Assembly (NCBI GenBank): GCA_016932965.1
Contig: JAFGBW010000018.1
Span: 1 to 6,851, forward strand
DNA length: 6,851 nucleotides
Source: Candidatus Auribacterota bacterium
Lineage (GTDB): Bacteria; Auribacterota; JAFGBW01
Direction: 5' to 3'
The position numbers and the translations under genes were made by a program. Every line of letters begins with the position of its first letter. Position 1 is the first letter of the stretch. The notes under the pieces are model-generated. The model did not search any database, was not told the DNA's origin, and saw only the letters and a program-made list of their open reading frames with translations. Shown one piece after another: positions 1-6,851 of the stretch.

Positions 1-830
1 AAATTGTGATGTCAGAAAAAATCGCTGAAGACGTGCTGAAGTTTGAAATCCAGGCTCCAAGGATTGCCGAAAAAAGAAAACCCGGGCAATTCGTTGTCAT
101 TCGGGTGGATGAAAAAGGAGAACGGATCCCCTTGACCATTGTGGATTCAAACTTAAACAAAGGTACCATTACGTTGATCTTTCAGGTCGTGGGTGTTTCC
201 ACCAGGAAACTGGCCTCTTTAAAAACAGGGGATTCATTGATGGATGTTTTAGGCCCCTTGGGGCATGCAACGCATTTAGAAAAATACGGGAAAGTGATCG
301 CCATAGGAGGAGGGGTTGGCATAGCCCCTCTTTACCCCATCTCAAAAGGCATGAAGGATGCCGGAAACAGCGTCATTGCCATTTTGGGAGCCAGATCAAA
401 AAATCTCATGATTTTGGAAAGAGAAATGAAAGCCATCTGCACTGAGATACACCTGGTCACGGATGACGGATCTTATGGAGAAAAAGGCCTGGTTACGAAT
501 GTATTGAAAAAAATGCTGGATACGGGAACTCATCCGGATATCGTCATCGCCATTGGACCATTGGTCATGATGAAAGCAGTCAGCGAGCTGACCCAGCCAT
601 ATGGCATTAAAACCATGGTGAGCTTGAATCCCATCATGGTGGACGGGACAGGGATGTGCGGAGGCTGCAGGGTTGATGTCGCCGGAGAAATAAAATTCGC
701 CTGTGTGGACGGCCCGGAATTCGACGGCCATGCGGTCAATTTTGACAAGCTGTCCATACGATTAAAAGCCTATAAGACATATGAAAAACATTCTATGGAA
801 CAATGCAAGCTGCAAGGAATGATAAAATGA
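1..830 (+). CDS. nfnA: NfnA: ferredoxin-NADP+ oxidoreductase subunit alpha (FAD/[2Fe-2S], SudB-like), 5' end cut by window
   Basis: Small subunit of NADH-dependent reduced ferredoxin:NADP+ oxidoreductase, a cytoplasmic flavin-based electron-bifurcating transhydrogenase. Numbering from GTG at 6: a ferredoxin-reductase-type FAD domain with KPGQF (25-29) and RIPLTI (40-45); a nucleotide-binding domain with IGGGVGIAPLYP (100-111) and the TDDGSYGEKG stretch (152-161); and a C-terminal [2Fe-2S] site with Cys218, Cys221 and Cys233 in MCGGC...FACVDGPEFDGH. The family's cluster is described as having three Cys and one Asp; Asp213 just upstream is a candidate (inference). Family members begin about M-x-K-I-V before the first strand, and the frame reads (K)-I-V-M-S-E-K from position 1. 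The real start is therefore probably two or three codons outside the window, and GTG 6 and ATG 9 are likely internal. The gene ends with an ATGA overlap with nfnB, so the two are translationally coupled. A homologous pair has been called sulfide dehydrogenase (SudAB), so that name remains possible. Confidence 0.93.
   Translation, partial: IVMSEKIAEDVLKFEIQAPRIAEKRKPGQFVVIRVDEKGERIPLTIVDSNLNKGTITLIFQVVGVSTRKLASLKTGDSLMDVLGPLGHATHLEKYGKVIAIGGGVGIAPLYPISKGMKDAGNSVIAILGARSKNLMILEREMKAICTEIHLVTDDGSYGEKGLVTNVLKKMLDTGTHPDIVIAIGPLVMMKAVSELTQPYGIKTMVSLNPIMVDGTGMCGGCRVDVAGEIKFACVDGPEFDGHAVNFDKLSIRLKAYKTYEKHSMEQCKLQGMIK
814..818 (+). promoter_or_regulatory. Ribosome binding site deciding the nfnB start
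   Basis: AAGGA lies 8 bases before the ATG at 827, inside the last codons of nfnA. It favours 827 over the in-frame upstream ATG at 803, which would add eight residues not expected in the family. Confidence 0.7.
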
Positions 831-2254
831 ATCCTGTTCTGAAACCCGATAAAAAAGAGAGAATGAAAATACCGCAGGTTCCGATGAGGGAACAGCCTCC
901 CCATGAAAGGATATATAATTTTAATGAAGTCCCCTACGGCTATAATCCGGAAGAAGCCCAAAAAGAGGCTGTCCGGTGTCTGGAATGCCCTAATGCGCCT
1001 TGTATAAAGGGGTGTCCTGTCAACATTGATATTCCGGCTTTCATAGAATTGATCGTTCAGGGAAATTTCGAAGGGGCCTTGGGAAAAATAAGGGAAACCA
1101 ATTCTCTCCCGGCCATCTGCGGCAGGGTTTGTCCCCAGGAAGTACAATGCCAGATTGTATGCACGTTGGGAAAAGTGAAGGGGCAAACCCCTGTGGCGAT
1201 TGGCAGACTCGAGCGTTTCGTTTCTGATTATGCCAGGGAAAAAGAAATAAAACCACGAATCAATCAGAAGCCTTCAACCAATAAAAAAGTGGCCGTCATT
1301 GGATCGGGTCCTGCCGGACTGACAGCTGCAGGAGAACTGGCCTTAATGGGGCACCAGGTCAGGGTTTTTGAAGCTTTCTCAGCACCAGGCGGAGTTCTCC
1401 TTTACGGGATCCCTGAATTCAGACTTCCCAAAAAAATCATTGATATGGAAGTGGAGTATTTAAAAATGCTCGGCGTTCAATTCGAATACAACTGCCTTGT
1501 CGGGAAAACCGTGACTTTGCAGGAACTCATGGAAAAGGAGGGCTTTCAGGCTGCTTTCATCGGAACCGGAGCAGGACTGCCTTATTTCATGGGTATTCCT
1601 GGTGAAGATCTGGTCGGCGTGTTCAGCGCAAACGAATTTTTAACCAGGTCCAACATGATGAGAGCCTACCGATTTCCTGAATTTGATACTCCTATTTTAA
1701 AGGCAAAAAACGCCGTGGTGGTTGGAGGAGGAAACGTGGCTATGGATGCGGCACGGACTGCTCTCCGGCTTGGATGTGAAAAAGTGAGCCTCGTTTACCG
1801 CCGAAGCATGGAGGAAATGCCGGCCAGACATGAAGAAATCGAGCATGCACGGGAGGAAGGGATCCAGTTCGAAATACTGACCCTCCCTCTTCGTTACATT
1901 GGTGATGAAAACGGCATTGTCAAAGAAGCCGAATGCCTTCGCATGAAGCTGGGGGAGATGGATAAAAGCGGACGAAGAAAGCCTGTTCCAATTGAGGGAA
2001 GTCAATTTATTCTGAAAACCGATCTGGTGATCGTTGCCATTGGAAATGGTGCCAATCCGATACTAGTTAAATCCACGCCAGGTTTGGGAACAGACAAAAA
2101 AGGACATATTCAAATTGATCCGGAAACCCATGCCACAAATATTCCGGGTATTTACGCTGGCGGAGACATTGTCACCGGCGCGGCCACAGTCATAGAAGCC
2201 ATGGGTGCAGCCAAAAAAGCAGCAGCGGCAATTCACCGGTACTTAAGTTTATGA
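827..2254 (+). CDS. nfnB: NfnB: ferredoxin-NADP+ oxidoreductase subunit beta (GltD/GltA-like FAD, NADPH and two [4Fe-4S])
   Basis: Large, bifurcating subunit of the NfnAB transhydrogenase, homologous to the small subunit of glutamate synthase (GltD); 475 residues, full family length. The N-terminal ferredoxin-like domain carries two cysteine groups: Cys51/54/59/63 (CLECPNAPCIKGCP) and Cys98/102/108/112 (CGRVC...QC...C), for two [4Fe-4S] clusters. The FAD site is VIGSGPAGLTAA (157-168), followed by the family block APGGVLLYGIPEFRLPK (186-202). The second Rossmann motif, VVGGGNVAMDAARTALRLG (298-316), binds NADPH, with YRRS (324-327) after it. The C-terminal FAD-contact block is GIYAGGDIVTGAATVIEAMG (441-460). 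The alternative reading, a stand-alone glutamate synthase small subunit, is less likely because the gene directly follows nfnA with a 4-base overlap and no large glutamate synthase subunit is present. Together the pair is expected to oxidise NADH and reduced ferredoxin to make NADPH, or the reverse. No residue of the visible motifs is missing. Confidence 0.95.
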   Translation: MNPVLKPDKKERMKIPQVPMREQPPHERIYNFNEVPYGYNPEEAQKEAVRCLECPNAPCIKGCPVNIDIPAFIELIVQGNFEGALGKIRETNSLPAICGRVCPQEVQCQIVCTLGKVKGQTPVAIGRLERFVSDYAREKEIKPRINQKPSTNKKVAVIGSGPAGLTAAGELALMGHQVRVFEAFSAPGGVLLYGIPEFRLPKKIIDMEVEYLKMLGVQFEYNCLVGKTVTLQELMEKEGFQAAFIGTGAGLPYFMGIPGEDLVGVFSANEFLTRSNMMRAYRFPEFDTPILKAKNAVVVGGGNVAMDAARTALRLGCEKVSLVYRRSMEEMPARHEEIEHAREEGIQFEILTLPLRYIGDENGIVKEAECLRMKLGEMDKSGRRKPVPIEGSQFILKTDLVIVAIGNGANPILVKSTPGLGTDKKGHIQIDPETHATNIPGIYAGGDIVTGAATVIEAMGAAKKAAAAIHRYLSL

Positions 2255-2279: not shown

Positions 2280-3014
2280 TCACATATTCAGGCTGATTCC
2301 TGCAATCAGAGAGAGATCGTTTTTCTTCACATTTTCAGCCGGTTTGCTGTCGTAACGATCTTGAAGCACAAGCCTCAGATTGATTTTCGAATTCAAGGCT
2401 GCTTCAGCTCCTGCTTCCGCATTGATCAGATGGTTTTCAAAATCATTTAGTTTGGGCAGGTATTCAAGACTCTGCCAGATTTTCGCCGTCTCACTGAATT
2501 GATGATCGAACCTCTGCGACAACCGCACGGTAAGATAGTCATCCTTTATTTCAGAGACTTCCTCCCATACATAAGAAAGACCGGTTTCAACAGACAGTTT
2601 CGAAGAATCCTTTTTAATGAGATACAACCCCGCTCCGGGACCTACACTCACCCGGTAATCGATACTGGCGATGTCATCATTCAAGGCTGAAAGATCCAGA
2701 TAGGCAAACGTCTTTTCTGAAAGTGTTTTTTTACCGTTTCCGAAACCCTTGATGTTTTTTACGGTGGTCTCACTTTCATCGTTCATGGTATTTTCGCCGT
2801 AATTAGCCTCCGCGCCGAACCGTACGGAACCAAAGCCTTTGCTTTCTCCTTCTGAGACCAGGCTGGCATTCGCCTGAAGTGTTTCGCTGTTGCCGCTGGT
2901 GAGAGTCAGTCCTGCAGACAATGTGGTTTTGAGTTTTCCTTCTTCTGCCATGGCAGGAGAAGAAAATAGGCGTAACATAATCCATACCAACAGCCATTCA
3001 CCTCTAAAATTCAT
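2280..3014 (-). CDS. DUF481 (YdiY-like) outer-membrane beta-barrel protein
   Basis: A 244-residue secreted protein of the DUF481 family, known mainly as salt-induced or uncharacterised outer-membrane barrels. A signal peptide covers residues 1-23: hydrophobic LLVWIMLRLF, then SSPAMA, with likely cleavage before EEGK. The mature part shows alternating beta-strand pattern and DUF481 hallmarks: LTLTSGNSET near the N-terminus (36-45) and IDYRVSVGPGAGLYLI (118-133), followed by KLSVETGLSYVWEE. The start at 3014 is chosen because AGGAGG lies just upstream (3019-3024) and it places the signal peptide correctly; a longer form from 3047 adds 11 polar residues. The last residue is Met rather than the terminal aromatic typical of outer-membrane barrels, although the final strand pattern (LIAGISLNM) fits a barrel. 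The gene converges on nfnB with 25 bases between them and diverges from the mscS-like gene. Function is unknown; a porin-like or envelope-stress role is only a guess. Confidence 0.85.
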   Translation of the reverse strand: MNFRGEWLLVWIMLRLFSSPAMAEEGKLKTTLSAGLTLTSGNSETLQANASLVSEGESKGFGSVRFGAEANYGENTMNDESETTVKNIKGFGNGKKTLSEKTFAYLDLSALNDDIASIDYRVSVGPGAGLYLIKKDSSKLSVETGLSYVWEEVSEIKDDYLTVRLSQRFDHQFSETAKIWQSLEYLPKLNDFENHLINAEAGAEAALNSKINLRLVLQDRYDSKPAENVKKNDLSLIAGISLNM

Positions 3015-3018
3015 GATT

Positions 3019-3024
3019 CCTCCT
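3019..3024 (-). promoter_or_regulatory. Ribosome binding site deciding the DUF481 gene start
   Basis: On the - strand AGGAGG, the full anti-16S core, stands 4 bases before the ATG at 3014. It selects that start over the upstream in-frame start at 3047. Confidence 0.75.
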
Positions 3025-3033
3025 GATTCTTTA

Positions 3034-3066
3034 TTGATCGAATTCAAATATTCATTATAATATAAT
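3034..3066 (+). promoter_or_regulatory. Sigma-70-like promoter for the mscS-like gene in the divergent intergenic region
   Basis: TTGATC at 3034-3039 (four of six bases match the -35 consensus) is followed after 16 bases by a perfect TATAAT at 3056-3061. A second, overlapping TATAAT follows at 3061-3066. Transcription would start near 3068-3073, giving a leader of about 40 bases before the ATG at 3113. A TATAAT also reads on the - strand at 3059-3054, but without a well-placed -35, so the promoter of the divergent DUF481 gene is not resolved. Confidence 0.45.
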
Positions 3067-3112
3067 ATTCCAAATATAACATCAGTCTATTCAAAATGAA
3101 GGAAAATATCTT

Positions 3113-3613
3113 ATGAATGAAATATATACTACATCCCAAGATTATTTCATGCGGTACGGAATGAATGTTATCGGAGCGATTTTGATTATTTTCTTGGGAC
3201 GCTGGGTATCCCTTCTACTCACAAATTTGATTGGAAAAATCATGGGAAAATCTAAAGTGGACCAGATCCTGATTTCTTTCATCAAAAATCTGGTTTATTA
3301 CGGTCTCATGACAGTGCTGGTGATTGCCGCGCTCAATAAACTCGGCATCCAGACAGCGTCATTCATCGCTGTTGTAGGAGCCGCCGGATTGGCTATCGGC
3401 ATGGCGCTTCAGGGATCGCTGTCCAATTTTGCTTCAGGCGTGCTCATCGTCATATTCAGGCCGTTTAATATCGGCGATAAAATCGAAGTGGCAGGTGTCA
3501 CCGGAATTGTTCAGGAAATCCAGATTTTTAACACCATCTTAAAGTCTGCGGAAAACAAAAGGATCATCCTTCCCAATTCCAAAATCACGGCTGATAAAAT
3601 CATCGTCGGATGA
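3113..3613 (+). CDS. MscS-family mechanosensitive ion channel, C-terminally truncated
   Basis: Inner-membrane small-conductance mechanosensitive channel family; 166 residues against about 286 in E. coli MscS. Three membrane helices are visible: TM1 about 17-40, TM2 about 57-78 and the pore helix TM3 about 83-117. TM3 has the Gly/Ala-packed VVGAAGLAIGMALQGSLSNF run (87-106), including the LQGSLSNFASG block. The beta domain follows (FRPFNIGDKIEVAGVTGIV, then IILPNSKI at 151-158). The protein ends at DKIIVG, the point that aligns with N-I-I-N-F-S of E. coli MscS, so about 110 residues forming the rest of the beta domain and the alpha/beta cage are absent. No MscS-like sequence follows in any forward frame. 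AAGGA at 3099-3103 lies 9 bases before the ATG, so translation starts normally. The stop is three bases from the stop of the convergent DUF3592 gene. It may be a decayed gene or a short functional form. The core and start look intact, so I leave it as a CDS. Confidence 0.85.
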   Translation: MNEIYTTSQDYFMRYGMNVIGAILIIFLGRWVSLLLTNLIGKIMGKSKVDQILISFIKNLVYYGLMTVLVIAALNKLGIQTASFIAVVGAAGLAIGMALQGSLSNFASGVLIVIFRPFNIGDKIEVAGVTGIVQEIQIFNTILKSAENKRIILPNSKITADKIIVG

Positions 3614-3616
3614 ATA

Positions 3617-4288
3617 TCATGGGCTCCTGCTCTGCCGGAAGGAAATCAGTTTATTCCGGATATTCAGGATCATCGGCTTGCAGAGAATATATCCTGAATA
3701 GATCAGTCCGAAACCGGACCCATTGATGATCAGAGAGGAGAAGGAAGAAAATTCCGTTGTGCCGGAAAGAATTTTTTCTGCCTGAGAAAACATCATCATC
3801 CCCCCGGATTGAATCAGGAAGATGCCCGCGAAAAATTTCTTTAAAAAACGTCTGATATTCACCAGGATGAGGGATACAAACGCTAAAAAACCCCCGATCA
3901 GGGCATCCGTTACGGCTGATAGTGTCATTCCGGGTTCCAAAACAGCCTGTTCCGGATTCCCTCGGTCATAAAAGACCTGGATCAGTTTGCCGACAGGGTA
4001 TTTTTTCAGGTATTTTTCTGCTTCAGACTGTTTTCCTGCTTCACTGGCAAATCGAATCCTGTCATGAACCCGTTTGCGGTTGGAAACAATATATTCGTAT
4101 TTAATTTTTGGAATATAGCGGATGATTTTTTTATCCCCTTCTGAACCAGCTTCAACGGAGGAAGATATGATCTTTCCCTGAGTTTCCAGCCAGAAATAAC
4201 TTTTATACGCATAATAAAGTTCTTCCTTTGCCTTGTTGAGAAAGGCAAGGGCTCCAAAAAAAATCAATAATTTGAATAATTTAACCAT
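3617..4288 (-). CDS. DUF3592 domain membrane protein
   Basis: A 223-residue protein matching the pattern of the uncharacterised DUF3592 family. There is one N-terminal membrane segment (about 5-18), then an extracytoplasmic-type beta domain. This domain has the family landmarks: a Trp followed by TQGKIISSSVE (W33 onward), YIPKIKYEYIVSN (58-70), and KKYPVGKLIQVFYDRGNPEQ (95-114) with AVLEPG after it. Three further hydrophobic stretches follow at about 122-146, 153-168 and 185-203, and the tail is basic. The ATG at 4288 is preferred over a TTG two codons upstream; neither has a good Shine-Dalgarno sequence. It is convergent with the truncated mscS-like gene (three bases between stops) and divergent from hemW. 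No function is established for this family, and the neighbours do not suggest one beyond being envelope proteins. Confidence 0.75.
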   Translation of the reverse strand: MVKLFKLLIFFGALAFLNKAKEELYYAYKSYFWLETQGKIISSSVEAGSEGDKKIIRYIPKIKYEYIVSNRKRVHDRIRFASEAGKQSEAEKYLKKYPVGKLIQVFYDRGNPEQAVLEPGMTLSAVTDALIGGFLAFVSLILVNIRRFLKKFFAGIFLIQSGGMMMFSQAEKILSGTTEFSSFSSLIINGSGFGLIYSGYILCKPMILNIRNKLISFRQSRSP

Positions 4289-4301
4289 GTCCAAGCATAA
4301 T

Positions 4302-4350
4302 CTGGTTTTAAGTCCGGCTTTATTTATAATAGGTTATTGTCAAAGCACAA
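4302..4350. promoter_or_regulatory. Possible divergent promoters between the DUF3592 gene and hemW
   Basis: On the + strand a perfect TATAAT lies at 4325-4330 with only a weak -35 (CTGGTT, 4302-4307, 17-base spacing); this would leave about a 50-base leader before hemW. On the - strand TTGTGC (4350-4345) is 16 bases from TATAAA (4328-4323), giving about a 28-base leader for the DUF3592 gene. Both are weak matches and their overlap would make them compete. Confidence 0.25.
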
Positions 4351-4386: not shown

Positions 4387-5541
4387 ATGCCGGATAAAAT
4401 GAGCGGGTCGTCATTTGGAGTTTACGTTCATATCCCTTTTTGCATCCAGAAATGCAGATACTGTGATTTCAATACGGTTTTGCGTTCTTCCTGCCATGGG
4501 GAAACGATCAATCGTTATCACCATGCCATGCTGCTCGAATGGGGTAGGCTTCAAAACAGAATCAAGGAACTCACTTCGGTTAAAACCATCTATTTTGGAG
4601 GAGGCACCCCCTCTCTTTATCCTGTGGATAAAGTGCAGGACCTGCTTGAAAAGATATTCTCCCATGCCTTGGTTCACCAGGGTTCGGAAATCACCATGGA
4701 AATCGATCCCAAAACCATCCGCAGACAATCCCTCGTGAAACTCCATGCGTTGGGAGTAAACCGGATCAGCATGGGCATTCAGAGCTTTTCAGATCCTGTT
4801 CTCGCCATCTTGGGCCGCTATCATCGCCAAAAGGATATCCTCGCCTGTTATGAAGACTGCCGTTCGGCCGGTTTCACCAACATCTCTTTTGATTTGATTT
4901 TCGGAGTCCCCGGACAAACGCTTTCTTCATGGGAAGAGGATTTAAAATGGGTCCGGTGTCTCAAGCCGGAACATGTTTCTTTATATAATCTCAACCTTTC
5001 GCGCGGCACTGATTTTTTCCGCAAAAGAAAAAAACTGGAATTTCCTGATGAAAGAAGCCAGATTCGCATGTATCATGCGGCCCATCATTCATTGAAAACA
5101 ATCGGCATCCGGCCTTATGAAATATCCAATTTTTCCAAGCCAGGATATGAATCCCGTCATAATATGGATTGCTGGAACCGAAAACTCTATGTTGGAATTG
5201 GTGCGGGAGCGAGTTCCTTTCATGGCGGAAAACGCTGGCAGAATGTGAAAAATATCCACTCCTACATTCAAAAGATTGAAAAAGGAGGCTTGGCGTTCAG
5301 TCAAACGGAAACTCTGAATCTTCAAAAAGAAAAAATCGAGTATGTATTTCTCTCCCTTCGTCAGGTAAAGGGCTTCGACAGAGAAAGTTACAGAATCTAT
5401 TTTCAAAGCAGCATCGAAAAGGATTTTCCGTCATTATTCACGCATCCGGAATTGAATTCCTTGATCAGGAAGAAGAAAAGAATTAGATTAACCCTGAAAG
5501 GAAGAATCCTGAGCAATGAAGTATTTCAGGAATTATTTTAA
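4387..5541 (+). CDS. hemW: HemW: radical SAM heme chaperone (formerly annotated as oxygen-independent coproporphyrinogen III oxidase-like)
   Basis: A cytoplasmic radical-SAM protein of 384 residues (E. coli HemW 378) that binds heme and delivers it to respiratory-chain enzymes. The opening motif is VYVHIPFCIQKCRYCDF, with Cys19, Cys23 and Cys26 ligating the [4Fe-4S] cluster. Phe28 stands where true coproporphyrinogen dehydrogenase (HemN) has the extra Cys of its CxxxCxxCxC motif, so this is HemW and not HemN. The SAM-binding block FGGGTPS is at 70-76, followed by EIDPKT (105-110), RISMGIQSF (126-134) and DLIFGVPGQT (169-178). The block SLYNLNLSRGT (198-208) is also HemW-like. The C-terminal heme-associated HNxxYW motif reads HNMDCW (258-263), with Cys in place of Tyr, followed by the conserved GIGAGASSF. 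A winged-helix-like tail completes the protein. AAGGA at 4373-4377 lies 9 bases upstream of the ATG. The last 26 bases overlap the proposed start of the next gene. Confidence 0.92.
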   Translation: MPDKMSGSSFGVYVHIPFCIQKCRYCDFNTVLRSSCHGETINRYHHAMLLEWGRLQNRIKELTSVKTIYFGGGTPSLYPVDKVQDLLEKIFSHALVHQGSEITMEIDPKTIRRQSLVKLHALGVNRISMGIQSFSDPVLAILGRYHRQKDILACYEDCRSAGFTNISFDLIFGVPGQTLSSWEEDLKWVRCLKPEHVSLYNLNLSRGTDFFRKRKKLEFPDERSQIRMYHAAHHSLKTIGIRPYEISNFSKPGYESRHNMDCWNRKLYVGIGAGASSFHGGKRWQNVKNIHSYIQKIEKGGLAFSQTETLNLQKEKIEYVFLSLRQVKGFDRESYRIYFQSSIEKDFPSLFTHPELNSLIRKKKRIRLTLKGRILSNEVFQELF

Positions 5542-6851
5542 CAAAGGACTGACACAGCCTGTGCATAGGAAAATTTTAACAAGGTTTTTTATTCTATTCA
5601 TAGCTGGGCAAACCTTTCTTTTCGCTAATGAGGAAACAGCTGCAACAAAGTTGCCTGAAACCTCCCATCCTGTTGCTGTGCGGCTCCTCAACATTCTTCT
5701 GAAGCATGGCAAGGAAATGGGTACAATTGAACAGCTTTCAGAAAAATTATCCGCAATCCCTTCCCTTGACGGAACTCTTATGCCTATTCTTTGTGAGAAG
5801 GGCCGGATAATCGTTTTGTGGGATGCCGTCCAGTTCAAGATTATTTTGGTCTGGTCCCAAATCCCTTTTGCCTTGGAATCTGGCCTCTCCCGGCAGGACT
5901 TTCCGGAGAACACCAGGATTTTTTCACCTGAAGATTTTGATACATGGCTTTTATCGGATGTTGAACTTCTGGATCAAGTCGTAAAAAACGCTGATTTTCT
6001 GCAAAAATGGATTCCTCATCTGAATCCGGAAAGTCCCCTGGGCCCAAGACAATTATTATCCTATTTATTTTCCATAGGCAGGCCTCAAAGACATTATAAT
6101 CTGGCTTCTGTTCTTGGAGAGGATAAATTCTTTTCCGGCATCACGGAAAATGACCAGGAATTTCGCTTCCTTCATCTGCCTTTGCTGCATTTTACGCTTT
6201 CCAAGAAGCATGTATTGTATTTCTGTAAAATTCGGGATGAAAAAATTCTGGAAAATCTTCCGAATCTTCTGGAAAAATACTGGGCCGATCCATCTGAACG
6301 GGCCCAATTCATCCAGACGTTTAAAACGACTCTTCAATCCATACAAAATACCTCCTTCAATGAAGAGACTTTTTTTAATGAACTAAAGAAGATTCTGGAC
6401 AAGGCTTCCCAGAAATACGACTTTTCAAACATCAATCCCGAGATAAAACAGCCGTTGATCAGAAACATCATTATCTTTTTTCAATCTAACGGAATAGCGG
6501 GCTTCAACGATTTCCGAAACGCGGAAGACTGGTTCAAAAAGGAGGTATCCGAACAATTTTTAATGGCCAAGACCACCGCTTTTTTCAGGGACTGGCGGGA
6601 AATGAAATTTTTATATTCCTGGTTAATTCATCTGGATAAACAATGTTCTCAGGAAAAACGTCCCATTAAAATCAAGGTGTTCGGCTGTTCCACAGGCCAG
6701 GAAGCGCTGTCTTACGCTTTTGAACTACTGGATTTGGGCATCAATCATTTCACCATTCTCGCTTCCGATATTGATGCCAATGTGCTTGCCGAAGCGGAAC
6801 AAATGGCTTATTCCGCAGACAAATTTCAAACCATGCCCTTGATGAAGAAAA
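5516..6851 (+). CDS. Signal-anchored protein with C-terminal CheR-type methyltransferase domain, 3' end cut by window
   Basis: An uninterrupted frame of 445 codons running off the window end. Residues 1-23 are strongly basic, followed by a hydrophobic stretch (about 20-37, ILTRFFILFIAGQTFLFA) and acidic NEE, as in a signal peptide or N-in anchor. Residues about 40-305 match no family I recognise; they are rich in Leu, Phe and Lys and probably mostly helical. A CheR N-terminal helical subdomain spans about 308-366, with KTTAFFRDW (352-360) standing for the family's T-x-x-x-F-F-R motif. The SAM-dependent methyltransferase fold then begins: IKVFGCSTGQEALSYA (386-401) for the SAM loop and ILASDIDANVLAEAE (414-428) with acidic Asp418/Asp420 for the ribose. 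The catalytic domain is incomplete here. Known CheR enzymes methylate chemoreceptor glutamates in the cytoplasm. The ATG at 5516 overlaps hemW by 26 bases, with AAGGA 13 bases upstream. GTG at 5561 (AAGGA 5544-5548, 12 bases away) would give a shorter, more standard 22-residue signal peptide. Target and role are unknown. Confidence 0.75.
   Translation, partial: MKYFRNYFNKGLTQPVHRKILTRFFILFIAGQTFLFANEETAATKLPETSHPVAVRLLNILLKHGKEMGTIEQLSEKLSAIPSLDGTLMPILCEKGRIIVLWDAVQFKIILVWSQIPFALESGLSRQDFPENTRIFSPEDFDTWLLSDVELLDQVVKNADFLQKWIPHLNPESPLGPRQLLSYLFSIGRPQRHYNLASVLGEDKFFSGITENDQEFRFLHLPLLHFTLSKKHVLYFCKIRDEKILENLPNLLEKYWADPSERAQFIQTFKTTLQSIQNTSFNEETFFNELKKILDKASQKYDFSNINPEIKQPLIRNIIIFFQSNGIAGFNDFRNAEDWFKKEVSEQFLMAKTTAFFRDWREMKFLYSWLIHLDKQCSQEKRPIKIKVFGCSTGQEALSYAFELLDLGINHFTILASDIDANVLAEAEQMAYSADKFQTMPLMKK

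What the first reader, a model, noticed from the sequence alone, without database searches (positions are those of the whole stretch)
5516..6851. CheR methyltransferase domain behind an export-like N-terminus and an unassigned ~270-residue region
Seen: one open frame carries a basic N-terminus, a hydrophobic segment of about 18 residues, an acidic stretch, a long unrecognised region, and then CheR-type motifs (FFR at 356-358, GCSTG at 390-394, SDID at 417-420). Established: CheR proteins use cytoplasmic SAM on cytoplasmic receptor glutamates, and standard CheR is about 270-290 residues with no signal peptide. Inference: the charge pattern predicts N-in/C-out, which would put a SAM-dependent enzyme outside the cytoplasm. 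Either the topology is different (for example a second membrane pass; 98-120 is fairly hydrophobic but contains Asp103 and Lys108), or the domain has been reused for something other than chemotaxis. No chemotaxis genes are visible nearby.
Basis: partly seen in the sequence, partly recalled or inferred. Interest (0 to 1): 0.6.

Follow-up and report, generated by a model that had tools for sequence, protein, structure and literature searches.

The report
Exported CheR-like methyltransferase-fold protein family
The gene belongs to a small, apparently undescribed bacterial family that carries the methyltransferase part of a chemotaxis enzyme on a protein marked for export from the cell, usually beside or fused to an exported hydrolase; this is odd because the methyl donor it should need (SAM) is not known to be available outside the cytoplasm.

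Summary
The ORF (5516-6850, cut by the contig end) has an export-type N-terminus, a ~270-residue region with no Pfam or PDB-sequence match, and the first half of a CheR SAM-binding domain (PF01739, E=1.9e-13). It continues on contig C246 of the same Ca. Auribacterota MAG (about 927 aa, ending in TPR-like helices).

It is one of five paralogues here. Homologues lie in one other Auribacterota genome, one Omnitrophota and three Elusimicrobiota genomes. All ten members with a known N-terminus have a signal-peptide-like start; none of eight canonical CheR controls does. AlphaFold models match CheR-SAH crystal structures (Z about 21) and show no second membrane pass.

In all four non-Auribacterota loci the gene sits beside, or is fused to, an alpha/beta hydrolase whose free-standing versions have their own signal peptide or lipobox. 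The fusion independently places the CheR domain outside the cytoplasm. An APC permease is adjacent in three of three testable loci.

Most SAM-pocket residues are conserved; the CRNV arginine of canonical CheR is lost. Likely role: extracytoplasmic methyl transfer paired with an exported esterase, with SAM supply unknown. The chemistry is inferred; export is well supported by sequence, not by experiment.

The parts
5516..6850 (+). Partial ORF (445 aa, no stop before the contig end) of an exported CheR-TPR family protein; continues on contig C246 (545 further codons with a 63-codon overlap, total about 927 aa)
5516..5626 (+). Predicted Sec-type signal peptide, residues 1-37 (basic n-region, hydrophobic core at about 20-36, candidate cleavage LFA|NE after residue 37)
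   Evidence: hydropathy 2.14 over 12 residues, net +4 before it; same feature in 10/10 homologues and 0/8 canonical CheR controls. Cleavage site is a (-3,-1) rule reading, no SignalP was available
5561..5563 (+). Alternative GTG start (residue 16), 20 bases after the HemW stop; would give the signal peptide MHRKILTRFFILFIAGQTFLFA
   Evidence: which start is used is not determined
5627..6451 (+). Family-specific N-terminal region, residues 38-312; no known domain by profile; in the paralogue model it looks like two beta-beta-beta-alpha units followed by helices
   Evidence: the two-unit reading is by eye from predicted secondary structure
5807..5875 (+).
   Evidence: alignment, model
6452..6571 (+). 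Residues 313-352, short helical segment in the place of the CheR N-terminal helical domain (QSNGIAGFNDF ...)
   Evidence: alignment; model overlap with CheR structures from residue 143 (C43) and 331 (C41)
6572..6850 (+). CheR SAM-binding domain, first half (residues 353-445)
   Evidence: PF01739 E=1.9e-13
6581..6589 (+). FFR motif, residues 356-358 (Arg conserved in all members)
6683..6703 (+). GCSTGQE SAM motif, residues 390-396
6764..6775 (+). SDID, residues 417-420 (acidic residue of the SAM pocket)
6662..6851 (+). 190-bp overlap with the end of contig C246 (93% identity, 9 synonymous and 4 nonsynonymous differences), joining the gene to its 3' part
4387..5541 (+). Upstream HemW-like radical SAM gene; its end overlaps the ATG start of the exported CheR ORF by 26 nt
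   Evidence: Pfam Radical_SAM

Best explanation
The window holds the 5' half of a gene for an exported (periplasmic or secreted) multidomain protein: signal peptide, a family-specific N-terminal region, a CheR-fold methyltransferase domain with most of its SAM pocket conserved, and a C-terminal TPR-like superhelix. It founds a small family, apparently undescribed, in Auribacterota, Omnitrophota and Elusimicrobiota. Most likely mechanism: after Sec export the TPR and N-terminal regions bind an envelope or extracellular target, the CheR domain transfers a methyl group to it (carboxylates by analogy with CheR), and the partner exported alpha/beta hydrolase removes an ester, giving a writer/eraser pair outside the cytoplasm. 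SAM would have to be supplied there, perhaps by a co-located transporter (APC permease, or EamA in one locus) or from lysed or neighbouring cells. Shown from sequence: family, domain order, conserved motifs, hydrolase linkage and fusion. Strongly inferred: export (about 0.9). Weakly inferred: catalytic activity, target, SAM source.
For: Export signal in 10/10 members and 0/8 canonical CheR. One member (Elusimicrobiota, L057) is fused at its C-terminus to an alpha/beta hydrolase whose free-standing relatives in five other genomes each carry their own signal peptide or lipobox, so the CheR domain of the fusion must share that extracytoplasmic compartment. Hydrolase adjacent in 4/4 non-Auribacterota loci; its Ser (GASxG), Asp and His triad residues are invariant. 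APC permease adjacent in 3/3 testable loci. AF2 models at pLDDT 84 and 78 match SAH-bound CheR 5ftw at Z 20.9 (248 residues, 3.7 A) and Z 21.4 (251 residues, 2.6 A). TxxFFR, CSTGxE, SDI, N and Y of the SAM/active site kept in all members, which argues for selection on the pocket. Purifying selection in the strain overlap, pN 0.027 against pS 0.218.
Against: SAM is not known to be available outside the cytoplasm (general knowledge; a literature search for 'periplasmic methyltransferase' plus SAM returned nothing). The CRNV arginine of canonical CheR is replaced by Q, L, M or K in every member. In Auribacterota the hydrolase and permease genes are not adjacent to the CheR paralogues. Transporters as SAM suppliers are guesses from family membership; the permeases score best against L-type amino acid transporters. 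No SignalP, proteomics or assay.
Confidence: 0.4

Rival explanations
1. Exported pseudoenzyme or ligand sensor: the CheR fold is kept outside the cytoplasm as a binding module for SAM, SAH or another nucleoside-like ligand, or as a scaffold, without methyl transfer; the TPR part transmits or recruits.
For: No known SAM source in the periplasm; the canonical CRNV arginine is lost in all members; the window paralogue has also changed GEE to GQE; five diverged paralogues in one genome suit recognition of varied ligands.
Against: R of FFR, the second E of GEE, D of SDI, N and Y are invariant or nearly so over three phyla, which is more than a scaffold needs.
Confidence: 0.28
2. Secreted effector-like enzyme: exported by Sec and then out of the cell or into a neighbouring host, prey or competitor cell, where it uses that cell's cytoplasmic SAM.
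For: Removes the SAM paradox. Some Omnitrophota and Endomicrobia are predatory or host-associated (general knowledge).
Against: The partner hydrolase is a predicted lipoprotein in one genome (L040, LFSAC), pointing to the envelope; no secretion-system genes were seen in the loci read; no delivery tag was found or tested for.
Confidence: 0.12
3. Cytoplasmic methyltransferase after all: the N-terminal segment is an uncleaved anchor in N-out/C-in orientation, or the true starts lie downstream.
For: It would restore access to cytoplasmic SAM; downstream ATG codons exist (residues 68, 89).
Against: Net positive charge before the segment in 10/10; alternative start GTG16 keeps the segment; conservation of a non-conserved-sequence hydrophobic start in 10/10; fusion to a hydrolase that is otherwise exported; no second membrane segment in the models.
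Confidence: 0.1
4. Artefact: chimeric contig, pseudogene or mis-binned sequence.
For: Metagenome assembly; the contig ends inside the gene and the join to C246 is a 93% identical overlap, not an identical one.
Against: Intact full-length paralogues with the same layout on C41, C75 and C43 of the same genome and in four further genomes; pN/pS about 0.12 in the overlap.
Confidence: 0.02

Closest known systems
CheR chemotaxis receptor methyltransferase (PF01739; PDB 5ftw, 1af7, 1bc5, 5y4r)
   Same: SAM-binding fold, with Z about 20-21 over about 250 residues; FFR, CSTGEE, SDI, N and Y motifs
   Different: Signal peptide; 160-350 extra N-terminal residues; CRNV arginine lost; no che genes nearby; C-terminal TPR superhelix; far below the NCBIfam CheR equivalog cut-off (29.9 against 435 bits)
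Cytoplasmic CheR proteins with C-terminal TPRs (the WspC / FrzF type, named from general knowledge; a che-cluster CheR of about 519 aa is present in this genome at C239)
   Same: Order CheR domain then TPR-type repeats
   Different: The che-cluster CheR controls have no signal peptide, lie with CheW/CheB/CheY-like genes and keep the CRNV arginine
CheR/CheB methylation-demethylation pair
   Same: A methyltransferase-fold protein paired with a serine hydrolase
   Different: The partner is an alpha/beta hydrolase (PF00561/PF12146), not CheB (PF01339), and is exported

Membership tests
CheR methyltransferase (PF01739) | Profile match above Pfam's curated cut-off | tested here: met
   All 10 sequences of alignment A2 match; window 50.7 bits against 27
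CheR methyltransferase (PF01739) | CheR fold | tested here: met
   Z 20.9 and 21.4 to 5ftw; based on paralogue models, as the window gene is truncated
CheR methyltransferase (PF01739) | FFR arginine, GxE glutamate, SDI aspartate, active-site N and Y | tested here: met
   Alignment with canonical CheR controls; for the window gene N and Y are read on C246
CheR methyltransferase (PF01739) | CRNV arginine | tested here: not met
   Q, L, M or K in every member with this stretch aligned; R in all aligned controls (C75 read)
Chemotaxis CheR (functional equivalog) | Cytoplasmic, no signal peptide | tested here: not met
   Signal-peptide-like start in 10/10 against 0/8 controls; prediction only
Chemotaxis CheR (functional equivalog) | NCBIfam equivalog cut-off (NF007902) | tested here: not met
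   About 30 bits against 435 for homologues
Chemotaxis CheR (functional equivalog) | Linked to che or MCP genes | tested here: not met
   None in the window or on C246. One paralogue (C75) does lie two genes from a CheB
Chemotaxis CheR (functional equivalog) | Methylates receptor glutamates with SAM | not testable with these tools
   Needs an assay
CheB methylesterase (for the partner hydrolase) | PF01339 domain | tested here: not met
   Partner hits PF00561/PF12146, no PF01339

The most novel reading that the evidence does not exclude
An extracytoplasmic SAM-dependent protein methylation system: an exported CheR-type writer with TPR targeting, an exported hydrolase as eraser (fused in one species), and a transporter that supplies SAM to the periplasm.
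Probability: 0.2. Interest if true: 0.9.

Novelty: new variant of a known kind. Interest (0 to 1): 0.62.

Why it matters
SAM-dependent methylation is taken to be a cytoplasmic activity in bacteria. A conserved family that sends an apparently intact CheR domain outside the cytoplasm, paired with an exported esterase-like hydrolase, makes the question of whether SAM, or a SAM-like ligand, exists and is used in the periplasm directly testable. It also gives a handle on envelope biology in three phyla known almost only from metagenomes.

Tried and rejected
Second membrane pass at 98-120: aligns to a predicted beta-hairpin. Downstream start without signal peptide: no support from homologues and the GTG16 alternative keeps the segment. 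Pfam low-score hits for the N-terminal part (Cas9_PI E=0.0077, TetR_C_10 E=0.07): below their cut-offs, not shared by other members. PDB sequence search with the N-terminal profile: nothing better than E=0.44. IMG/VR scan: no relatives in viral contigs. Conserved neighbourhood across the Auribacterota paralogues: none found. Literature searches for exported CheR, for CheR in these phyla, and for periplasmic SAM methyltransferases gave nothing relevant; searches for CheR active-site residue numbers gave nothing usable, so residue roles rest on general knowledge. The search tool found most members through profile alignments; members with very different motifs may have been missed.

Full report
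Check of the observation. The frame 5516-6850 (+) encodes 445 residues and runs off the contig. Pfam's CheR SAM-binding domain matches 353-441 at E=1.9e-13, but only to profile position 94 of 195, because the window is the whole of contig C221 and ends inside the domain. The gene's 3' part is on contig C246 of the same 3.14-Mb genome: 190 bp overlap at 93% identity in the same frame, followed by the rest of the domain and a helical C-terminus. The 13 differences are 9 synonymous and 4 nonsynonymous (pS 0.218, pN 0.027), as expected for strain variants of a gene under purifying selection. The join is therefore an inference, not an assembly.

Where it comes from. The nearest named relative, genome G001, has a contig of the same length (36,615 bases) as JAGLFH010000054.1, a Candidatus Auribacterota MAG; G001 is listed in the same order as the window's genome.

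The family. The window's genome holds five members: the window gene, C41 (987 aa), C75 (1035 aa), C270 (at least 812 aa, probably ending on C135) and C43 (797 aa). G001 has one (901 aa). A scan of 84,980 prokaryote genomes found further members only in an Elusimicrobia MAG (L038), an Endomicrobiales MAG (L040) and an Omnitrophota MAG (L041), apart from G001 itself; a phylum search added another Elusimicrobiota genome (G609/L057). Prevalence is low: 1 of 384 Omnitrophota, 3 of 340 Elusimicrobiota, and 2 of 44 Auribacterota genomes (full-length matches). The scattered distribution suggests horizontal transfer, which was not tested with a tree.

Export signal. No SignalP was available, so I used a plain measure: the most hydrophobic 12-residue stretch in the first 75-86 residues, and the net charge before it. 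The ten family members with a known N-terminus score 1.90-3.19 with +1 to +5 net charge; eight canonical CheR proteins from related genomes score 0.46-1.68. Several members have good signal-peptidase sites (AFA|DN, SYA|EL, VFS|QD, VFS|EG). The sequence of the segment is not conserved, only its character, as in true signal peptides. In both AlphaFold models the segment is of low confidence (residues 1-33 and 1-64 below pLDDT 50).

Independent evidence for the compartment. In L057 the CheR-TPR protein is fused to a C-terminal alpha/beta hydrolase (1033 aa in all; CheR E=5e-12, Abhydrolase_1 E=8.6e-12). In L038, L040 and L041 the same hydrolase is a separate neighbouring gene (25-52% identity between copies), and in the window's genome, G001 and G002 it lies elsewhere. 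All six free-standing copies start with a signal peptide or, in L040, a lipobox. Since the hydrolase is exported wherever it stands alone, the CheR domain fused to it is almost certainly exported too. An APC-family amino acid permease lies next to the CheR gene in L040, L041 and L057 (38-56% identical to one another); L038 is too short to tell. In G001 and G002 the hydrolase and the permease are neighbours, without the CheR gene. In the window's genome the three are unlinked.

Structure. The C43 model (797 aa, mean pLDDT 84, pTM 0.80) and the C41 model (987 aa, mean pLDDT 78, pTM 0.73) have the order signal peptide, beta-rich N-terminal part, CheR fold, TPR-like helices. The CheR part aligns to SAH-bound CheR 5ftw at Z 20.9 (248 residues, 3.7 A) and 21.4 (251 residues, 2.6 A); other CheR structures follow, and unrelated methyltransferases are near 12-13. 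The C-terminal part aligns to many TPR proteins, a common arrangement. The region corresponding to window residues 98-120 is a beta-hairpin. The N-terminal region has no Pfam or PDB-sequence match, but its fold was not searched alone.

Catalytic residues. Against canonical CheR controls, every member keeps the arginine of FFR, the second glutamate of GEE, the aspartate of SDI/TDI, the asparagine of the CRNV strand and the following tyrosine; every member with that stretch aligned has lost the arginine of CRNV, replaced by Q, L, M or K (in that automatic cut C75 was misplaced by a chance CSTG near its N-terminus, and its true domain, with CQNIFLYL, is). The window paralogue alone has GQE for GEE. 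From general knowledge these kept residues line the SAM pocket and active site of Salmonella CheR; I could not confirm residue roles from a paper here. The pattern favours a working SAM pocket with an altered acceptor site.

Not chemotaxis. The genome has one canonical CheR in a cluster with CheW-, CheB- and response-regulator-like genes (C239) and three MCP genes. No che gene is near the window gene. One paralogue, on C75, lies two genes from a CheB, which may be chance.

Mechanism. My preferred reading is an extracytoplasmic writer/eraser pair: CheR-type methyl transfer to an envelope or extracellular target, and ester removal by the exported hydrolase. The weak points are the SAM source and the absence of any assay. 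A pseudoenzyme or ligand-sensor reading is nearly as likely. A secreted effector using another cell's SAM would also resolve the paradox. Export itself I put at about 0.9.

Noticed in passing
L017:895-1974 (G001), L084 (G060), L087 (G007): AmmeMemoRadiSam-type radical SAM enzymes (TIGR04337, 349.6 bits against a cut-off of 220 for the L017 copy) with export-type N-termini: Sec-like in G001 and G060, and a Tat-like RRTFL start in G007. A second kind of SAM-using protein with an export signal, in two genomes that also carry the exported CheR.
   Followed up: partly
L017:10218-11096: An EamA-family transporter gene lies directly upstream of the G001 exported CheR gene on the same strand (78-bp gap); some EamA/DMT members are known SAM transporters (general knowledge).
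   Followed up: no
G001 C1 (L076:6127-7632, 9188-10675) and G002 C143 (L079:1013-2539, 2947-4335): The exported hydrolase (here 462-501 aa) and the APC permease stay neighbours, with a nitroreductase-like gene, where no exported CheR gene is adjacent, so the hydrolase-permease pair may be the older unit.
   Followed up: partly
L077:9050-11560: In the window's genome the hydrolase follows two short genes without Pfam match that look like coiled-coil membrane proteins.
   Followed up: no
window 3-2254: A pair of genes resembling the two subunits of an NADH-dependent ferredoxin:NADP oxidoreductase / sulfide dehydrogenase, overlapping by 28 nt; ordinary.
   Followed up: no
window 3113-3613: A short MscS-type channel ORF (166 aa) with only the channel core.
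   Followed up: no
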